Below are positions 10,816 to 56,521 of a stretch of DNA of 64,000 nt, in pieces. Source of the stretch: Sneathia sanguinegens. GTDB taxonomy: Bacteria; Fusobacteriota; Fusobacteriia; Fusobacteriales; Leptotrichiaceae. The translations under genes were made by a program, and so were the position numbers. The notes beneath the pieces were generated by a model, which did no database searches, was not told the DNA's origin, and saw only the letters and a list, made by a program, of their open reading frames with translations. Within the stretch, counting starts at the first letter, position 1. Every line of letters starts with the position of its first letter. The stretch spans positions 124,001-188,000 of the forward strand of contig NZ_LOQF01000001.1 of NCBI RefSeq assembly GCF_001517935.1, given 5' to 3'.

Positions 10816-12606
10816 ATGAAGAATAAAAGAATATGGACAAAATTAGCAACAGTACTTTTGCTTGGGTCTTTAGTAGCATGTCAACCAGGTAAAAGAAGAT
10901 CAGAAATGGGAAGTAAAAATTTAAAATTATTATTCCCACAAATTTATGAATCAAAAGAAAAAGAAATTAAGGGTGGAACTTTTAAGGTAGGTGTTACAAG
11001 CTCAACATCATTTAGTGGTTTACTTAGTCCTTTAATTCAAACTACTGCATTAGATGGAGAATTTAGCGGACCAATAGACGCTCCACTTTTTGTGCCAGGA
11101 AAGGATTTCAAGGTTAGTGATAAAGGACTTGCTAAAATTGATGTAGATGTCGATAATAAAGTAGTTACAGTGACATTAAGACCTAATTTGAAGTGGGATG
11201 ACGGTCAACCTATGACTATAGATGACTATATCTTCACTTATGAAGTAGTAGCACACCCTGATTATACAGGTGTTAGATATGATGAAAGTGTTCAACAAGT
11301 AAATGGTATAAAAGATTATCATGAAGGTAAGGCAAAAACTATTAGTGGTTTAGAAAAAGTAAATGATACAACTGTTAAAATACACTTTAATAAATTAAGT
11401 CCTGCTGTATATAATGGTGGTGGAGGTCTATTATCTTTCATAGCACCTAAGCACGATTTAAAAGATGTGCCAGTTAAAGATTTAGAAAAATCTGAAAAGA
11501 CAAGATTAAAAGTTGTTGGTGCAGGACAATATAAGATAAAACAAATAGTTCCTGGTGAAAGTATAGAATATGTACCAAATGAATATTACTATAAGAAAGA
11601 TGAAATACCAAAAGTTGATAGCTTAATTAAAAAAATATTGCCAGATAATGCATTATTATCATCAATGAAAAATGGTGAATATGATGAATATTCTAGTGTT
11701 CCTTCAGATCTATATCAAGAATATAAAGACTTTAATAATTTGGTTGTTTTAGGAAGACCACAATTAGGATACTCATATTTAGGTTTCGATTTAGGACATT
11801 GGGATGCTAAAAAAGGAGAAAATGTAACAGATCCAGATAAAAAGATGGCAGATATTAATTTAAGAAAAGCTATGGGATATGCTTTGAATGTAGAAGAAGT
11901 AATAAATAGTTTCTATAGTGGTCTAAAGACAAGAGCAACTGGAGTTATACCACCTGTATTTGAAAGTATATATAATTCAAAACCAAGCATAACATACAAT
12001 GTTAAAAAGGCTAATGAATTATTAGACAAGGCTGGATATAAAGATGTAAATGGAGATGGAATAAGAGAAGATAAGAATGGAAAACCATTAGAAATAATAT
12101 TTGGTATGACAGCAAGTGGAGATATTGCAGAACCATTAACACAAAAATTCATACAAGACTGGAGAAAAGTAGGATTGAAGGTTAGCCTTGCAGGAGGTCG
12201 TTTACTTGAATCTAATAGTTTCTTTGAAAAATTACAATCAAATAATAAAGGCTTCGATATTTGGATGGCAGGTTGGTCAGTAGCAAGTTCTCTAGATTTA
12301 AATGGAATATATGGAAATCATTCTAAGTTCAATATTGCTAATCTTGCATCAGCAAGAAATAATGAATTAATTGATAAAGTAAATTCATTAGAAGCATTAA
12401 AAGATCCTGAATATAGATTAAATGCTATTAAGGAATGGGAAAATAACTACATGGAAAATGAATTAGGATTCTTACCACTATGGTTTAGTTATGAATTATT
12501 CCCAATTAATAAGAGAGTTAAATTTGAAACTTGTAAGTATGATAATACTGATTTGGGTCCACATCCAACAGCAGTAACTTCACAACAAACTTTGATGGCT
12601 AAATAG
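10816..12606 (+). CDS. Oligopeptide ABC transporter substrate-binding lipoprotein, copy 1
   Basis: Family 5 (OppA/DppA) extracellular solute-binding protein of 596 residues, anchored through the lipobox LVAC near residues 19-22. Typical blocks are LKWDDGQPMTIDDYIFTYE, GAGQYKIKQIVPGESIEYVPN, NLRKAMGYAL and FDIWMAGW. DVNGDGIREDKNG is a calcium-loop-like motif also found in other OppA proteins. A second, very similar gene lies at 22494-24272. No permease or ATPase gene is adjacent to either, so both probably serve a transporter encoded elsewhere. A strong terminator follows. Confidence 0.92.
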   Translation: MKNKRIWTKLATVLLLGSLVACQPGKRRSEMGSKNLKLLFPQIYESKEKEIKGGTFKVGVTSSTSFSGLLSPLIQTTALDGEFSGPIDAPLFVPGKDFKVSDKGLAKIDVDVDNKVVTVTLRPNLKWDDGQPMTIDDYIFTYEVVAHPDYTGVRYDESVQQVNGIKDYHEGKAKTISGLEKVNDTTVKIHFNKLSPAVYNGGGGLLSFIAPKHDLKDVPVKDLEKSEKTRLKVVGAGQYKIKQIVPGESIEYVPNEYYYKKDEIPKVDSLIKKILPDNALLSSMKNGEYDEYSSVPSDLYQEYKDFNNLVVLGRPQLGYSYLGFDLGHWDAKKGENVTDPDKKMADINLRKAMGYALNVEEVINSFYSGLKTRATGVIPPVFESIYNSKPSITYNVKKANELLDKAGYKDVNGDGIREDKNGKPLEIIFGMTASGDIAEPLTQKFIQDWRKVGLKVSLAGGRLLESNSFFEKLQSNNKGFDIWMAGWSVASSLDLNGIYGNHSKFNIANLASARNNELIDKVNSLEALKDPEYRLNAIKEWENNYMENELGFLPLWFSYELFPINKRVKFETCKYDNTDLGPHPTAVTSQQTLMAK

Positions 12607-22393: not shown

Positions 22394-22458
22394 ATAAATA
22401 AAATTAATGATTACATAAAAAAAATATATTTTACATTTCACATTTTTTTGGGTATAAT
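22394..22458 (+). promoter_or_regulatory. Promoter with a conserved A-rich upstream module (oligopeptide lipoprotein copy 2)
   Basis: TTTACA (22430-22435), a 17-base spacer and TATAAT (22453-22458). Upstream, ATAAATAAAATTAAT (22394-22408), six variable bases, then a 21-base A-tract/TATATTTTACA block (22415-22435) are base-for-base the same as before livJ at 35720-35761. Confidence 0.88.
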
Positions 22459-22493: not shown

Positions 22494-24272
22494 ATGAAGG
22501 TATCCAAAATAATTATGAGTATAATGTGTATTTCAGCTTTTTTTTCTTGTCAACCAGGGCAAAAAAAATCTGCTAAAGCTGAAAAGGTAAATTTACTATT
22601 TCCACAAACATGGGAATCTAAAGAAAAAGCAATTAAAGGAGGAACATATAAGGTAGCGGTAGTTAGTCAATCACCTTTTATGGGACTTTTTAATGAAATT
22701 TTAGCTAATTCAGTAGTAGATACTGCATTTTTAGACCCTATAAGTGCACCTTTATTTACAACAGGTAAGGATTTTATAGCAGATGATAGAGGACTTGCAA
22801 AAATAGATATAGATGTAGATAATAAAATAGTTACTGTAACTTTAAGAAATAATTTGAAATGGGAAGATGGTCAACCAATGACTATAGATGACTATATATT
22901 TACTTATGAATGTATAGGAAATCCTGATTATACAGGTGTTAGATATGATTCAGGTTTAGAACAAATCAAAGGTATGAAAGAATTTCATGAAGGTAAGGCA
23001 AAAACTATAAGTGGATTGGAAAAAGTAAATGACAATGTAGTTAAGATACATTTCTATGAATTAAGTCCAACTATTCGTACTTTAGGTGGAGGTATTTTTA
23101 CTTCAATAATTCCAAAACATTATTTAGCAGATGTTCCGGTTAAGGATTTAGAAAAATCTGATAAAGTAAGATTACATCCAATTGGAGCAGGGCCTTGGAA
23201 GATTAAACAAATAATACCAGGTGAAAGTGTTGAATATGTACCAAACGAAAATTATTATAAACCAAATAATATACCTAAGGTAGACAAAATGATAATGAAG
23301 ATATTACCAGACAATTCATTATTATCATCAATGAAAAATGGAGAATTTGATTATTATAAACAAGCAGGTACAGCACTTTATAGTGAATATAAAGATTTGA
23401 ATAATTTGGTTGTTTTAGGAAGACCTCAATTATCATATTCATATTTAGGATTCAATTTAGGACATTGGGATGCTAAAAAAGGAGAAAATGTAACAGATCC
23501 TAATAAGAAAATGGCAGATATTAATTTAAGAAAAGCAATGGGTTATGCAGTTAATTTAGAAGAAATTGCAACAAGCTTTTTCAATGGATTACAAACTAGA
23601 GCTACAGGTGTAATACCACCAGCTTTTGAAACTCTATATACACCTAAGGAAAGATTTAAATATAGTCCTGAAAAAGCTAATGAATTATTGGATAAAGCAG
23701 GATATAAAGATGTAGATGGAGATGGAATAAGAGAAGATAAAAATGGAAAACCACTTGAAATATTCTTAGCTTTCCCTGCAAGTGGTGATATTGCAGAACC
23801 ATTATCACAAAAATATATACAAGATTGGAGAAAAGTAGGTTTAAAGGTTTCACTTACAGGTGGAAGATTAATTGAAGGTAATTCATTCTTTGATTTACTT
23901 GATAGTAATTCAGATAGTTATGATATTTGGTTAGCAGGTTGGTCAGTTGGAACTTCAATGGATATTAATGGATTATACGCAAGAAATGCAAAATTCAATA
24001 TGTCTAGAATAACTTCAAAAAGAAATGATGAATTAATGGCAAAAGTTAATTCAACACAAAGTTTGAAAGATCCTGAATATAAAGCAAAAGCTTTAAGGGA
24101 ATGGGAAGATAATTATATGGAAAATGAACTAGGATTTTTACCATTATTATTTAGATATGAATTATTCCCAGTTAATAAGAGGGTAAAATTTAGTAGTATT
24201 GTCTATGATGATTCAAATATTAAGGATGTACCATTAGAATTAACATCACCAGAACCTTATAGACAAAAATAA
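22494..24272 (+). CDS. Oligopeptide ABC transporter substrate-binding lipoprotein, copy 2
   Basis: Family 5 solute-binding protein of 592 residues with signal peptide and lipobox (FFSC, then QPGQKKS). It is closely related along its length to the protein at 10816-12606; the QPMTIDDYIFTYE, AKTISGLEKVND and GHWDAKKGENVTDP blocks are identical in both. It keeps the calcium-loop-like DVDGDGIREDKNG. It has its own strong promoter and no adjacent permease genes. The differences from copy 1 cluster in the N-terminal lobe and near the C-terminus, so the two may differ in peptide preference; that is inference. Confidence 0.92.
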   Translation: MKVSKIIMSIMCISAFFSCQPGQKKSAKAEKVNLLFPQTWESKEKAIKGGTYKVAVVSQSPFMGLFNEILANSVVDTAFLDPISAPLFTTGKDFIADDRGLAKIDIDVDNKIVTVTLRNNLKWEDGQPMTIDDYIFTYECIGNPDYTGVRYDSGLEQIKGMKEFHEGKAKTISGLEKVNDNVVKIHFYELSPTIRTLGGGIFTSIIPKHYLADVPVKDLEKSDKVRLHPIGAGPWKIKQIIPGESVEYVPNENYYKPNNIPKVDKMIMKILPDNSLLSSMKNGEFDYYKQAGTALYSEYKDLNNLVVLGRPQLSYSYLGFNLGHWDAKKGENVTDPNKKMADINLRKAMGYAVNLEEIATSFFNGLQTRATGVIPPAFETLYTPKERFKYSPEKANELLDKAGYKDVDGDGIREDKNGKPLEIFLAFPASGDIAEPLSQKYIQDWRKVGLKVSLTGGRLIEGNSFFDLLDSNSDSYDIWLAGWSVGTSMDINGLYARNAKFNMSRITSKRNDELMAKVNSTQSLKDPEYKAKALREWEDNYMENELGFLPLLFRYELFPVNKRVKFSSIVYDDSNIKDVPLELTSPEPYRQK

Positions 24273-35719: not shown

Positions 35720-35784
35720 ATAAATAAAATTAATAGTAGTATAAAAAAAATATATTTTACACTGAGAAATAATAATAGTATAAT
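35720..35784 (+). promoter_or_regulatory. Promoter with a conserved A-rich upstream module (livJHMGF)
   Basis: TTTACA (35756-35761), a 17-base spacer, TATAAT (35779-35784). The 15-base ATAAATAAAATTAAT (35720-35734) and the 21-base block ending in TTTTACA (35741-35761) are identical to those at 22394-22435 with the same 6-base gap. Confidence 0.88.
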
Positions 35785-35817
35785 TGAAAAAAATAAAATA
35801 TGAAAGGAAGTAAACAC

Positions 35818-36912
35818 ATGAAAAAGTTTCTAACTTTAGCAATAATGCTAATAATATCTCTTACCAGTTGTAAATCAAAGGCAGATAGTAATGAAATTAT
35901 TATTGGCGTGCCTGAGCCTCTAACTGGTGAATATGCCCAATATGGTACATCAATTAAAGAAGGAATAGAATTAAAGATTGCTGAAATTAATGAAAACGGT
36001 GGAATTAATGGTAAAAAAGTAAAAGCTGTATATCAAGATACAAAGGGTGATGTACAAGAATTAGTAAATATATTTAAGCAAATGGTTAATAATGGTATTG
36101 ATGCAGTATTAGGAGAATCAATTTCAGCAAATTCAGCTGCTTTAGCAGAATTAGCACAAAAGGCAAAAATACCTATGATAACACCTGCAGGGACTGCTTT
36201 AGATATTACACAAGATAGAGATTATGTATTTAGAACAACATTTACAGATCCATATCAAGGACAAGTATTAGCAAAATATTTGAAAAAAGAAGGTGTACAA
36301 GATGTTGCCTTATTAGTCAATAAGGGAAGTGATTATTCAGTAGGTGTAGCAGAAGCCTTTAAAAAAGAAGCAGCTAAGGATGCTATTAAAGTTTATGAAG
36401 AAAATTACACTAATACAGATAAAGATTTTAAAACAATATTAACTAAGATTAAAAATGAAGGATATAAGACAGTTGTAATACCTGATTATTATAATACTAT
36501 TGGGTTGATATTATCTCAAGCTAAAGAAATAGGACTAGAAGCTCAATATTATGGAGCAGATGGTTGGGATGGTATACAAGATAGCTTCGCTAAATTAGCT
36601 GAAGGAGCTATATTTTCATCACAATTTACTTCAGATGATACAACACCAAAAGTTCAAGAATTTATTTCTAATTATAGAAAGAAATTTTCAAAAGAACCAT
36701 TAATTTTTGCAGCTCTAGGTTATGATGCAATGACAACATTAGAAAGTGCCTTTAAAAAAGGTGGAGATCTAAAGGAAGCATTGAAAAACACAGATTTAGA
36801 TTTATTAACAGGTCATGTTAAATATGATGAAAATGGAAATCCTAAAAAGAAAGTAACCTTTGTACAAATAAAGAATGGTAAACAAGTATTAAAAGAAAAA
36901 TTTGGTGAATAA
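35818..36912 (+). CDS. livJ: Branched-chain amino acid ABC transporter substrate-binding lipoprotein
   Basis: Type 1 periplasmic-binding-fold protein of 364 residues (IIIGVPEPLTGEYAQYG, GGINGKKVKAVYQDTKG, SISANSAALAELAQ). The lipobox LTSC lies near residues 14-17. The start at 35818 is preceded by AAAGGAAG with a 7-base gap; the in-frame ATG at 35800 is upstream of that site. It is the first gene of a complete livJHMGF operon behind a strong promoter. Leu/Ile/Val is the family expectation. Confidence 0.93.
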   Translation: MKKFLTLAIMLIISLTSCKSKADSNEIIIGVPEPLTGEYAQYGTSIKEGIELKIAEINENGGINGKKVKAVYQDTKGDVQELVNIFKQMVNNGIDAVLGESISANSAALAELAQKAKIPMITPAGTALDITQDRDYVFRTTFTDPYQGQVLAKYLKKEGVQDVALLVNKGSDYSVGVAEAFKKEAAKDAIKVYEENYTNTDKDFKTILTKIKNEGYKTVVIPDYYNTIGLILSQAKEIGLEAQYYGADGWDGIQDSFAKLAEGAIFSSQFTSDDTTPKVQEFISNYRKKFSKEPLIFAALGYDAMTTLESAFKKGGDLKEALKNTDLDLLTGHVKYDENGNPKKKVTFVQIKNGKQVLKEKFGE

Positions 36913-40344: not shown

Positions 40345-43155
40345 ATGAAAAGAAAAATGTTACTTATGCTTCTTTTGGCAACATTTAATAATTTTGCTAA
40401 AGAAGTTGATGTGAAAATAAGAATAGGGACACAAGCGAGTTTTGGAATAGAAGGTTTAGATATTAATGTAGACAAAGAAAAGACTTTTAAAATGTTTTTA
40501 CCTAGAGAAAATATATATGGAGAAGAAAAAAGTGATAATATAAATAAATTTGCAAGAAAGATACAAAATTTGACTGTAGAAGAGCCAAAAGCTCAGGCAA
40601 CAAGTTTTAGTAATGAAGGTAAAGCAAAAGATTTAATGAAGGAAATAGTTAAAAGAGGAGCTATTATAGATGTGCCATCTGTAGATATTGAATTTGATAT
40701 TCATAGGATAAAAACAAAGCTTGGGGCAAAATTAAGAGCTAATAGTTTAACATTCCGTAATAAAAAATATGAGCCAGGAATTCAAAAGGCTTTTATTTAT
40801 TCAAATACAGATACAGAACATTTTAAAATGTTAAATAAGCTATATATTAAAGGTTATGATAAGAAAAGTATAGGTTTTGATAAATATAGAGAACTTGAAG
40901 ATATAAGTGGCAAAGATGTTATGGAATTTGAAAGTGCTGGTAAAGTAAGAGCAACAAAAGGCTATATAAGACCAGAATTAGCATATGTTACGAGTTTATC
41001 AAATAAAAAAAGAGAAATCTTTATAGCGCCTAGCTTGGAAGTGGATGTTATAAATAATAAAGATAGACAATTAACTGTAAGTGCTAATTATCATTTTTCT
41101 AATCAAGCAAAAGATAAATTTAATATGGAAGAAATAAGAAAAGATGTTGAAGATTTTGCACCAGGAAATACGGAAGTTGACTATTTTAAAAAATGGGAGC
41201 TTGGAAAAATAAGAGATATAGAAAAAGGAGAGTTAAATGGTAAAAAAGGTTCTATTAGATCAATTAATTTACCAACTGGAACTCTTTATGGAAAAAATTT
41301 GATGGAATATTCAATTAATTTAGCCTATAAATCACTTATTCAAGAATTAGGTGAAGCTGGAACTAAAATGGAGAAGTTACTTAATAAAATACAGGATAAT
41401 AAACAAAATGGCAAATTAACTTTAGATGATATTAAAGAACTGTCAGTATATAAGGATCAATATAGTATGTTAAGTTCTAAGTTTAAAGATAATGAAAGCG
41501 TCATTAAATTTATATCTCCTTTTGTTGAAAAAGCTCTATATGAATTTGGTATGAAAAAGGAAGAAGAAGTTTCTAATTTCCATATTTCAAACTATATCCC
41601 AGATAATTATATGGAATATTTAAAATTTCTAAAAAAAGAAGTTAAAAATCAAGTTGCTAAACCACAAAATGTAACTATGGAACAATTAACTATAAAGAAA
41701 AAAATGACAATAGCAGATGATATAGATTTCATTTTCCCAGAAAAAGAATTAGAAGATGTAGGGAAGATAATAGGGTCAACAAAAATTCTAAAAAGTGTAG
41801 ATAAAATAGGTGGACTTATAGAAAAATTTAAAACTCCTTTAGAAAAATTATCAGAAGCAAAAAATAATTATGATAAAGTTAAGGCTGAATATGATAGTAA
41901 AAAATGTAGCAGTTTTTGGGATTGGGGTTGTAAAATTGATAAGGGTTTTCTTTTCGCAAAATTAGGTATAGAAGCTTTAGAAGTTGGAAATAAATTACTT
42001 GATGTTAGAAAAATTGTAGATGATAATAAGAAAGAAATACTTGAAGTATTAGATGATGGTATAGCTACTTTAAAAAAATTCGATGATAATAGTGAAAAAG
42101 TAAAAAAATCTATAAAAAATCTAGAAGATAGAAAAAAAGATATAGAAAATCTTGTGCATCTTGCTGCTCTAGAATGGTCTAAAATAAGATTTACAGAATT
42201 ATATTCAAATTTTAATAATTTAAAAAATATGGATGAAACATATATTAAGCCAATAAATGAAATAGTTCAAGAAAGAGGAACAAATATAGTTAAAAAAGCC
42301 TCTAATATAGTTATTCATCCAGAAAAAGTAGAAAATTTTGATATGTTTTCTGGTATTCAAATTTTAAAAACAGAGCATGATGTTAAGAAAAAAGAATATT
42401 ATGAAAAAATGAATAAAGAGGTTTTATCTAAAATTGATAAGGACTTCAGCGGTATAGTTCATGGTATGAATTTAAATTTTTTCTATAATGACAACATAGC
42501 TGAATTTTATACAAATTTGAATATAGATATTAATTCATTTAAGAAAAATATTAATAGTTTGAATAAATATTCAATTGTAGCAGATTTTGCATATGAACCT
42601 AGTTCACTTGATTTTAAAGCAAAAACAGCATTATCATATAAAGATTTTAAACTTGCTGAATTGAAATATGGTAAATTAAATATAGAAACTAATGTGCTAG
42701 CAAAATTAAAGTTAATAAGTAATAATAAAAAGTGGTTATTTAAACCAGGTATAGAATATATTGGTGAATTTGAGTATTTAAATTTAGAAAATTCACCTGT
42801 AGAAGTTGAAATATATAAGAGAAAAGATAATAAATTAGTAAAAAAAGCTAATTCAGAACTTACAAGCTCTGAAGAATTTAATAAATTGGAAAAAGGAGCA
42901 GCTGTAGATATTAATAAATATTCAAAATACTTATTTAAAGAAGGTTTTGATAAATACTTTGAAATGGAAAAATCTAAAGGTCAAAGTAGATGGTTGACAC
43001 CTATACATACTTTTATACCTACAGTTGAAATATTATATAGCCCTACAAAAAATGTAGAAATAGACTATAATTTTATCTTACCTATAAGAATAAAAAAAGA
43101 AAAGATAGAAGGAGTTATGGTCAAAAATGGCTTAGGAATAACTTTGAAATTTTAA
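40345..43155 (+). CDS. Large exported, probably outer-membrane-associated protein with central helical region
   Basis: No family recognised. It begins with a signal peptide (MKRKMLLMLLLATFNNFAKE) behind TAGGAGG. Residues about 20-300 are mixed beta (VDVKIRIGTQASFGIEG, AGKVRATKGYIRPELAYV). About 330-690 are largely helical and charged, including a Cys521-x7-Cys529 pair that could form a disulfide outside the cytosol. From about 690 amphipathic strands return (GMNLNFFYNDNIAEFYTNLNID, FKAKTALSYKDFKLAELKYG), ending in GLGITLKF with a terminal Phe as in outer-membrane barrels. It has its own promoter, and the next gene converges on it. A surface or barrel role is inferred. Confidence 0.65.
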   Translation: MKRKMLLMLLLATFNNFAKEVDVKIRIGTQASFGIEGLDINVDKEKTFKMFLPRENIYGEEKSDNINKFARKIQNLTVEEPKAQATSFSNEGKAKDLMKEIVKRGAIIDVPSVDIEFDIHRIKTKLGAKLRANSLTFRNKKYEPGIQKAFIYSNTDTEHFKMLNKLYIKGYDKKSIGFDKYRELEDISGKDVMEFESAGKVRATKGYIRPELAYVTSLSNKKREIFIAPSLEVDVINNKDRQLTVSANYHFSNQAKDKFNMEEIRKDVEDFAPGNTEVDYFKKWELGKIRDIEKGELNGKKGSIRSINLPTGTLYGKNLMEYSINLAYKSLIQELGEAGTKMEKLLNKIQDNKQNGKLTLDDIKELSVYKDQYSMLSSKFKDNESVIKFISPFVEKALYEFGMKKEEEVSNFHISNYIPDNYMEYLKFLKKEVKNQVAKPQNVTMEQLTIKKKMTIADDIDFIFPEKELEDVGKIIGSTKILKSVDKIGGLIEKFKTPLEKLSEAKNNYDKVKAEYDSKKCSSFWDWGCKIDKGFLFAKLGIEALEVGNKLLDVRKIVDDNKKEILEVLDDGIATLKKFDDNSEKVKKSIKNLEDRKKDIENLVHLAALEWSKIRFTELYSNFNNLKNMDETYIKPINEIVQERGTNIVKKASNIVIHPEKVENFDMFSGIQILKTEHDVKKKEYYEKMNKEVLSKIDKDFSGIVHGMNLNFFYNDNIAEFYTNLNIDINSFKKNINSLNKYSIVADFAYEPSSLDFKAKTALSYKDFKLAELKYGKLNIETNVLAKLKLISNNKKWLFKPGIEYIGEFEYLNLENSPVEVEIYKRKDNKLVKKANSELTSSEEFNKLEKGAAVDINKYSKYLFKEGFDKYFEMEKSKGQSRWLTPIHTFIPTVEILYSPTKNVEIDYNFILPIRIKKEKIEGVMVKNGLGITLKF

Positions 43156-55501: not shown

Positions 55502-55615
55502 TTTACTATGTGAAATTATTCTTTTTTTTTATATATAACAATAACAAAAAAATTTTTTTGATAATAAAAAAAACAAGTTACAATTATAATATAAGAATAT
55601 TTGGGGGATATTTTT

Positions 55616-56521
55616 ATGACTATTAAACAATTGAGGTATTTATTAGAAATAGAAAAGCAAGGTTCAATTAATAAGGCTTCGAAAAGTTTATTTGTAACTC
55701 AACCGAGTATAACGAAAGTTATAAAATCATTGGAAGATGAATTGGGAGTTAAGGTATTTTTTAGAAATGTAAAAAATAAACAAGTAGTGTTTACTTTGGA
55801 AGGAAAAGAATTATTGGAGTATGCTAGATCATTGACAGAACAATTTCAAATTATCGAAAATTCTTTAAAAAATATAAAAGTAAAATTTTGTATTTCATCG
55901 CAACATTACTCATTTGTTATAGAAGCTTTTGTTAAAGAAATTGCTAAAAATAAAGATGAAGGGTTTGAATATACTCTCATAGAGGGTAAAATACAAAATG
56001 TAGTTGAAGATGTTATAAGCATGAAAAGTTCAATAGGTTTAATAACCTTATATGACGATGTAAGTTGCTTAGCTAAAAAAAGTTTGGAAGATAAGGGTAT
56101 TTCATTTAATTCGATAAAAAAAGTTATACCACATATTTTCATTAGAAAAAAACATCCATTAGCTTCTAAAGAAGTTATTACTTTAAAAGATTTAGAAGAA
56201 TATCCTATTGTTCTATTTGATCAAGAAATTAATGCATTAAATTTCTGCAATTATACAAAAAATAATATGAATTGCAAGAAAGTAATAAAGGTAACAGATA
56301 GGGATACTATTTATACAATTATTAAAAATACAAATGCATATAATATAGGTACAGGAATAGTAAATAAGGAAATAGATGGAGATATTATTGTTAAACCATT
56401 GAAAGGGGAAATACCATCGATGGATATAGGATATTTGAAGCTTAAATCTCTTAAATTAAACAAAGAGATACAACATTTCATATCAGTAGTAACGAAATTA
56501 ATTAACAAATATACAGTTTAA
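55616..56521 (+). CDS. LysR-family transcriptional regulator
   Basis: N-terminal winged helix (TIKQLRYLLEIEKQGSINKASKSLFVTQPSITKVIKSLEDELG) and a C-terminal periplasmic-type ligand-binding domain, 301 residues. The start at 55616 is an ATG following a GGGGGAT site; an earlier TTG precedes that site. It is divergent from the YfcC/M20 operon across 164 bases. TATAAT at 55585-55590 and CAAGTTA at 55574-55580, a half-match to the shared dyad, lie in its own promoter. Confidence 0.92.
   Translation: MTIKQLRYLLEIEKQGSINKASKSLFVTQPSITKVIKSLEDELGVKVFFRNVKNKQVVFTLEGKELLEYARSLTEQFQIIENSLKNIKVKFCISSQHYSFVIEAFVKEIAKNKDEGFEYTLIEGKIQNVVEDVISMKSSIGLITLYDDVSCLAKKSLEDKGISFNSIKKVIPHIFIRKKHPLASKEVITLKDLEEYPIVLFDQEINALNFCNYTKNNMNCKKVIKVTDRDTIYTIIKNTNAYNIGTGIVNKEIDGDIIVKPLKGEIPSMDIGYLKLKSLKLNKEIQHFISVVTKLINKYTV

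What the first reader, a model, noticed from the sequence alone, without database searches (positions are those of the whole stretch)
22394..22458. Near-identical promoter modules before two different amino-acid/peptide uptake genes 13 kb apart
Seen: ATAAATAAAATTAAT, 6 variable bases, then 21 identical bases ending in the -35 TTTACA, at 22394-22435 and 35720-35761. Both have a 17-base spacer and TATAAT. The coding genes behind them (OppA-like and LivJ) are unrelated. Spacer and -10 flanks have diverged while the upstream parts are base-perfect, so the upstream parts are under selection: an UP element or a regulator site coordinating nutrient uptake. A weaker version lacking the distal block precedes 40345.
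Basis: seen in the sequence. Interest (0 to 1): 0.62.

Follow-up and report, generated by a model that had tools for sequence, protein, structure and literature searches.

The report
Conserved upstream switch on nutrient-uptake promoters
Two nutrient-uptake genes of a small AT-rich bacterium share a 36-letter DNA element just before their promoters; the same element recurs at the matching genes in related genera and at a few other genes of this genome, so it is probably a real binding site for an unidentified regulator or for RNA polymerase itself.

Summary
They are neither chance nor a recent local copy. Five copies exist in the 1.29-Mb genome: OppA-like, LivJ, two envelope-type proteins, and a site upstream of rpmF. 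A matrix built only from other genomes' livJ/oppA promoters ranked four of these first to fourth among 1.83 million positions in 457 kb of own DNA (28.0-30.2; shuffles at most 23.3); the fifth scored 28.3. In livJ promoters of other genera of the family, the best match was followed at the exact offset by a -10 box in 13 of 17 (about 0.6 expected), against 0 of 9 in the next family. The four misses are one genus.

The element is 36 bp, -71 to -36: two 15-bp blocks 21 bp apart, with dyad symmetry over the whole. The "six variable bases" are not free: the third is T in 16 of 18 sites. The "weaker version" before 40345 is not a member.

Most likely an activator site for a dimer-of-dimers regulator; an extended UP element is the main rival. 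Lrp/AsnC was not found. LysR-type fits the geometry but fails one genome. The binder is unknown.

The parts
22394..22408 (+). distal block (15 bp, ATAAATAAAATTAAT) of the element before the OppA-like gene; centre about -64
   Evidence: aligned with relatives
22409..22414 (+). 6-bp centre GATTAC of the dyad; third base T conserved
22415..22429 (+). proximal block (ATAAAAAAAATATAT), centre about -43, abutting the -35
   Evidence: 21/21 identical (with the -35) before an oppA homologue in G001
22430..22435 (+). -35 hexamer TTTACA
22453..22458 (+). -10 hexamer TATAAT, 17-bp spacer
22494..24272 (+). OppA-like extracellular solute-binding protein (SBP_bac_5), 592 aa
35720..35734 (+). distal block of the element before livJ
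35735..35740 (+). 6-bp centre AGTAGT
35741..35755 (+). proximal block, abutting the -35
35756..35761 (+). -35 hexamer TTTACA
35779..35784 (+). -10 hexamer TATAAT, 17-bp spacer
35800..36912 (+). LivJ-type binding protein (Peripla_BP_6); the likelier start is the ATG at 35818 (inference)
   Evidence: best score of its upstream region -3.2

Best explanation
A 36-bp dyad-symmetric upstream activating site built into a sigma-70-type promoter. Two 15-bp half-palindromic blocks (loosely ATWWAT-N3-AYWWAT) lie 21 bp apart, two helical turns, around an nnTAnn centre, and end at the -35 box, so the blocks are centred near -64 and -43. I infer that a regulator binds as a dimer of dimers on one DNA face and recruits RNA polymerase at the weak -35, giving joint control of abundant surface nutrient-binding proteins (LivJ, OppA), extended in this species to some envelope proteins. 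Shown: sequence, spacing, symmetry, promoter phasing, conservation at livJ in several genera and at oppA in fewer. Inferred: that a protein other than RNA polymerase binds, that it activates, and what it senses.
For: Independent ranking: a matrix from 14 relatives' sites, none from this genome, put C3:103920 (30.2), livJ, OppA-like and C2:151858 (28.0 each) first to fourth of 1,827,392 windows in 457 kb of own DNA; the next unrelated hit was 19.2, inside an ORF. Top scores in 20 dinucleotide shuffles were 14.0-23.3. The fifth copy, C8:49173, outside that 457 kb, scored 28.3. The reciprocal scan, own sites against relatives' loci, also put livJ/oppA promoters on top. Phasing: a -10 at the exact offset in 13 of 17 out-of-sample livJ upstreams. 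Dyad at the 36-bp centre: 0.614 complementary against a mean of 0.371, sd 0.053, the highest of all centres; block 1 repeats best at lag 21. Other strong-looking promoters of the genome lack it (129 upstreams built, the 45 best printed). At C2:151858 the -35 (TTGACA) lies 11 bp further downstream, about one helical turn, as expected for a factor kept on the same face.
Against: No binder identified. Lrp/AsnC (PF01037) was found in 0 of 5 genomes. LysR-type HTH_1 was not found in G004, which has a good livJ site. The element is almost pure A/T and many positions flip between A and T, as in minor-groove or UP-type recognition. No regulator gene was recognised next to livJ in the fetched relatives (read by eye only). 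Four genomes of one genus (g3) lack the site at livJ. In oppA homologues outside the training set the match was 3 of 11, all in genus g5. The C3 copy has no clear target gene. No expression or binding data exist here.
Confidence: 0.55

Rival explanations
1. An extended, family-specific UP element: the two RNA polymerase alpha C-terminal domains dock on the two A/T blocks near -43 and -64, making constitutively strong promoters for abundant surface proteins, without a separate regulator.
For: Position directly upstream of -35; nearly pure A/T; A/T flips tolerated between species; one-turn displacement at C2:151858 would suit flexible alpha linkers; no conserved regulator found. UP subsites lie between -40 and -60 in rrnB P1 (passage in PMC9655642), and doubled proximal subsites raised expression there.
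Against: Base-level identity between unrelated promoters of one genome (15 of 15 in block 1 for four of five own copies); dyad symmetry and a fixed 21-bp period; C and T in defined places, such as AATACATAT in several genera; absent from the other best-looking promoters printed; block 1 lies outside -40 to -60 for the most part.
Confidence: 0.3
2. The element is an operator for a repressor or silencer, for example a nutrient-sensing protein that blocks the -35 region when amino acids are plentiful.
For: Dyad symmetry and genes of nutrient uptake; regulators of uptake genes are often repressors (recalled).
Against: The element ends at the -35 and leaves the -35 to -10 spacer and start site free; spacer and downstream bases are less conserved (mean information 0.46 and 0.36 against 0.72-0.78 for the blocks).
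Confidence: 0.1
3. Dispersed or duplicated sequence without function: copies of one promoter spread recently in this genome.
For: Own copies are more alike than their counterparts in the sister species, so some copying or homogenising within the lineage is likely.
Against: Five of the six central bases differ between two otherwise identical modules; flanks unrelated by eye; livJ keeps the element at the same offset in genera whose LivJ is 51-60% identical.
Confidence: 0.04

Closest known systems
UP element of sigma-70 promoters (alpha C-terminal domain docking site)
   Same: A/T-rich, immediately upstream of -35, two subsites
   Different: 36 bp reaching -71, strict 21-bp period and dyad, specific to a few genes instead of strong promoters generally
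LysR-type regulator site (recognition box T-N11-A near -65 plus activation site near -35)
   Same: 15-bp imperfect palindrome T-N11-A centred near -64 and a second block next to -35 (positions from a passage in PMC8407307)
   Different: HTH_1 not found in one genome that has the site; no LysR-type gene was seen beside livJ; arms ATWWAT are not the recalled ATAC-N7-GTAT
Phage Mu middle promoter Pm (Mor dimer site centred at -43.5 with a partial UP element upstream)
   Same: A dimer site near -43 combined with upstream A/T sequence (abstract of PMC4390567)
   Different: Mor replaces the -35; here a -35 is present and both blocks are alike
Lrp/AsnC sites before livJ and oppABCDF in E. coli (recalled)
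   Same: Same target genes, 15-bp palindromic units at about two-turn spacing (recalled)
   Different: The AsnC_trans_reg family was not detected in any of 5 genomes searched

Membership tests
sigma-70-type promoter | -35 and -10 hexamers with 17 +/- 1 bp spacer | tested here: met
   TTTACA-17-TATAAT at both window sites and at C3:103920; TTGACA-17-TATCAT at C2:151858
UP element | A/T-rich subsites between about -40 and -60 | tested here: inconclusive
   Block 2 (-50 to -36) fits; block 1 (-71 to -57) lies mostly outside (range)
UP element | stimulates transcription by RNA polymerase alone through the alpha C-terminal domain | not testable with these tools
   needs in vitro transcription
LysR-type regulator site | T-N11-A palindrome near -65 with second site near -35 | tested here: met
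   T and A of T-N11-A in both blocks of all 18 aligned 6-bp-centre sites; partly circular because sites were chosen by pattern or matrix
LysR-type regulator site | an HTH_1 regulator in every genome that has the site | tested here: not met
   2 in own genome, 1 in G001, 1 in G013, but 0 in G004 (99% complete), whose livJ site scores 29.7 as a training site
Lrp/AsnC regulon | Lrp/AsnC protein encoded | tested here: not met
   PF01037 in 0 of 5 genomes, found in 11 of 14 controls
CodY regulon | CodY protein encoded; motif AATTTTCWGAAAATT (recalled) | not tested
   no search left for the family; the arms of the motif differ by eye
ArgR boxes | 18-bp TGAAT-W4-ATTCA boxes in pairs (recalled) | not tested
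   21-bp period is similar, but the half-palindromes here have a 3-bp centre and lack the G and C; ArgR gene not searched

The most novel reading that the evidence does not exclude
A so far unnamed regulator, ancestral to this family, runs a small 'surface-binding-protein' regulon through a 36-bp two-turn dyad fused to the -35 box, with site and regulator co-evolving: within this genome the sites are nearly identical, while between genera the sequence drifts but the geometry is fixed.
Probability: 0.3. Interest if true: 0.6.

Novelty: new member of a known kind. Interest (0 to 1): 0.45.

Why it matters
Little is known of transcription control in this branch of the fusobacteria: in F. nucleatum about 89% of mapped primary starts share only a pronounced -10 and weaker -35 (PMC11005410, passages seen). 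A conserved element with a fixed geometry gives a concrete handle, a 36-bp bait and a short target list, for finding what controls amino-acid and peptide uptake in small-genome bacteria that depend on such uptake. It also shows how a promoter module can be told apart from AT-rich background by phasing tests.

Tried and rejected
Lrp/AsnC as binder: rejected, family not detected in any of 5 genomes. LysR-type as binder: geometry fits, but HTH_1 was not found in G004, which has the site; kept as a lead, not filed. A regulator gene beside livJ: none recognised by eye in the 1.5 kb upstream in 15 loci. A regulator inventory of the held part of the genome: Pfam scans of 135 and 113 ORFs print only the 25 commonest families; they showed 2 TetR_N and 3 HTH_6 (rpiR) members, and a regular-expression scan showed one Fur-like protein (that scan missed the LysR-type protein of the window, so it is weak); too incomplete to name a binder. 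RNA families around five copies: none. The near-exact pattern in relatives: 29 of 60 genomes, the own one included, have some match with up to 1 mismatch, control matches are common too, and no exact match exists outside the own genome; exact letters are therefore lineage-specific and only the looser matrix shows the conservation. A first look at relatives' livJ upstreams and oppA upstreams printed minus-strand loci in the wrong orientation; redone. The C1:84008 copy next to oppB: block 1 exact but block 2 poor, and the orientation is reversed relative to oppB; scores 13.5-16.6, so not counted as a member. Matches in other genera were not followed up one by one, except G013:C1:1035184, which is its livJ promoter. 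Literature searches for 'Sneathia', 'Leptotrichia' and 'Leptotrichiaceae' with promoter or regulon terms, and for Fusobacterium promoters, showed no description of this element in the listings; that covers only the held open-licence library.

Rows dropped: one search left out L085 (contig end shifted its coordinates), added back; one search's column profile used 15 livJ sites (without L085, L096 and the four g3 loci without a site); one search used 18 sites with a 6-bp centre and left out the 7-bp-centre sites of genus g5. In one search the scan was limited to positions where a -10 still fits before the gene; without that limit the count is 12 of 17 instead of 13 of 17 (L096 is lost, compare). 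Members of one genus are not independent: by genus, 6 of 7 out-of-sample genera show it.

Full report
What was checked. The two modules are exactly as described: ATAAATAAAATTAAT, six bases, ATAAAAAAAATATATTTTACA, 17 bases, TATAAT, at 22394-22458 and 35720-35784. With up to 3 mismatches over 36 fixed bases the window holds these two only, and 0 of 100 dinucleotide shuffles hold one. Each half alone is unremarkable in this AT-rich DNA. Behind them lie an SBP_bac_5 protein and a Peripla_BP_6 protein.

In the whole genome. The assembly has 1,291,023 bases in 32 contigs. A degenerate 36-bp pattern with up to 3 mismatches finds five copies: the two in the window, C3:103920, C2:151858 and C8:49173; the backward control gave one. 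C2:151858 precedes a secreted, envelope-type protein and C8:49173 precedes a related one; neither has a Pfam match. That family has four members in this genome and none in the five relatives searched. C3:103920 begins right after a MATE-type gene (named by eye) and has a perfect promoter, but the next gene, rpmF, has its own TTGACA-17-TATAAT promoter, which the sister species keeps without the element. So that copy has no clear target. A sixth place, C1:84008 near oppB, has the distal block only and is not counted.

Is it conserved? The exact letters are not: 0 exact matches of the 15-6-5 pattern outside the own genome among 59 relatives. The geometry is. In the sister species G001, livJ has ATTAATGAAATTTAT-6-ATTAATTAAATATAT-TTTACA, and one oppA homologue has ATTAATTTTACTTAT-6-ATAAAAAAAATATAT-TTTACA, with the last 21 letters identical to the window. 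The closest oppA homologues of G001 are 59-64% identical to the window protein, and two such close copies exist in each species, so orthology there is not certain. G013 and G004, another genus, have the same layout at livJ.

Out-of-sample test. A matrix from seven sites of genera g1 and g4, without the -35 and -10, was run on livJ upstreams of other genera. The best match is followed at the exact offset by a -10 (at least 5 of 6) in 12 of 16 loci, 0.55 expected; a seventeenth locus also fits, giving 13 of 17. Without restricting positions it is 12 of 17. The misses (L081, L087, L088, L091) are all genus g3. By genus, 6 of 7 show it. Among 11 oppA homologues outside the training set, 3 fit, all in genus g5, with a 7-bp centre. 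In the next family, f4, 0 of 9 livJ upstreams fit. Against shuffles of the same upstream, the out-of-sample livJ loci that fit range from 0 of 300 to 65 of 300 reaching the score, so single weak sites (L089, L090, L095) rest on the phasing and not on the score.

Reverse test. A matrix from 14 relatives' sites only, scanned over 457 kb of own DNA on both strands, puts C3:103920, livJ, OppA-like and C2:151858 at ranks 1-4; the next unrelated hit scores 19.2 and lies inside an ORF. Twenty shuffles of the same DNA reach 14.0-23.3. C8:49173, outside the 457 kb, scores 28.3. The own-site matrix run on relatives' loci also puts livJ/oppA promoters on top, though one non-promoter stretch (L087, 18.1) and a few others come among the weaker true sites.

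Anatomy. Over 18 sites with a 6-bp centre, A1, T2, A10, A14, T15, A22, T23, A33, T34, A35 and T36 are invariant; base 18 is T in 16 and base 19 is A in 13. Those sites were chosen with patterns or matrices that reward such letters in the two blocks (not in the 6-bp centre), so invariance in the blocks is partly built in. The whole 36 bp is dyad-symmetric about base 18.5: 0.614 complementary, mean 0.371, sd 0.053, the highest of all centres tried. Block 1 is most like the DNA 21 bp downstream (0.678; next lag 0.537). With the usual numbering the blocks are centred near -64 and -43. In livJ promoters the blocks carry mean information of 0.72 and 0.78 per base, the 6-bp centre 0.77 (C and G are scarce, which raises it), the 17-bp spacer 0.46 and the upstream flank 0.33. 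At C2:151858 the -35 lies 11 bp further downstream.

How it may work. I favour an activator binding as a dimer of dimers, because of the dyad, the two-turn period, the one-turn displacement, the gene-specific occurrence and the free core promoter. The main rival is an extended UP element read by RNA polymerase alone, which the A/T make-up and the lack of a named binder favour. Nothing here measures binding or expression.

Known systems. LysR-type sites have T-N11-A near -65 and a second site near -35 (passages of PMC8407307; also passages of PMC11739112); the layout here is similar. But HTH_1 was found in 31 of 34 genomes and not in G004, which has the site, so I do not file it there. The own genome has two such proteins, one at window 55601-56521. 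Lrp/AsnC was found in 0 of 5 genomes. UP subsites are described between -40 and -60 (passage of PMC9655642). Mu Pm combines a dimer site at -43.5 with a partial UP element (abstract and opening of PMC4390567). PMC11005410 was seen in passages only. The searches named in Tried and rejected listed no description of this element.

Organism. No call names it. Genome size, base composition and the family structure suggest Leptotrichiaceae, perhaps Sneathia; that is recalled, not shown.

Noticed in passing
window 10816-12606: A second OppA-type protein, 66% identical to the one at 22494, without the element upstream (L134).
   Followed up: partly
window 55601-56521: A LysR-type regulator, one of two found in the genome.
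   Followed up: partly
L016 1501-1720 (G000:C3:103920-104139): A complete copy of the element with promoter right behind a MATE-type gene, reading into the rpmF promoter; no clear target, no Rfam match.
   Followed up: partly
L148-L151 (G000 C8, C2, C7, C11): A family of four secreted, envelope-type proteins of about 670-700 residues without Pfam match (two tested), not found in five relatives; two of the four carry the element.
   Followed up: partly
window 40345-43155: A 936-residue protein with a signal-like start and no Pfam match, behind a promoter resembling only the proximal half of the module.
   Followed up: no
L001 1501-1608 (G000:C1:83926-84033): Next to the oppB start, a copy of the proximal block with TTTACA lies 82 bp from an exact distal block, both pointing away from oppB.
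   Followed up: partly
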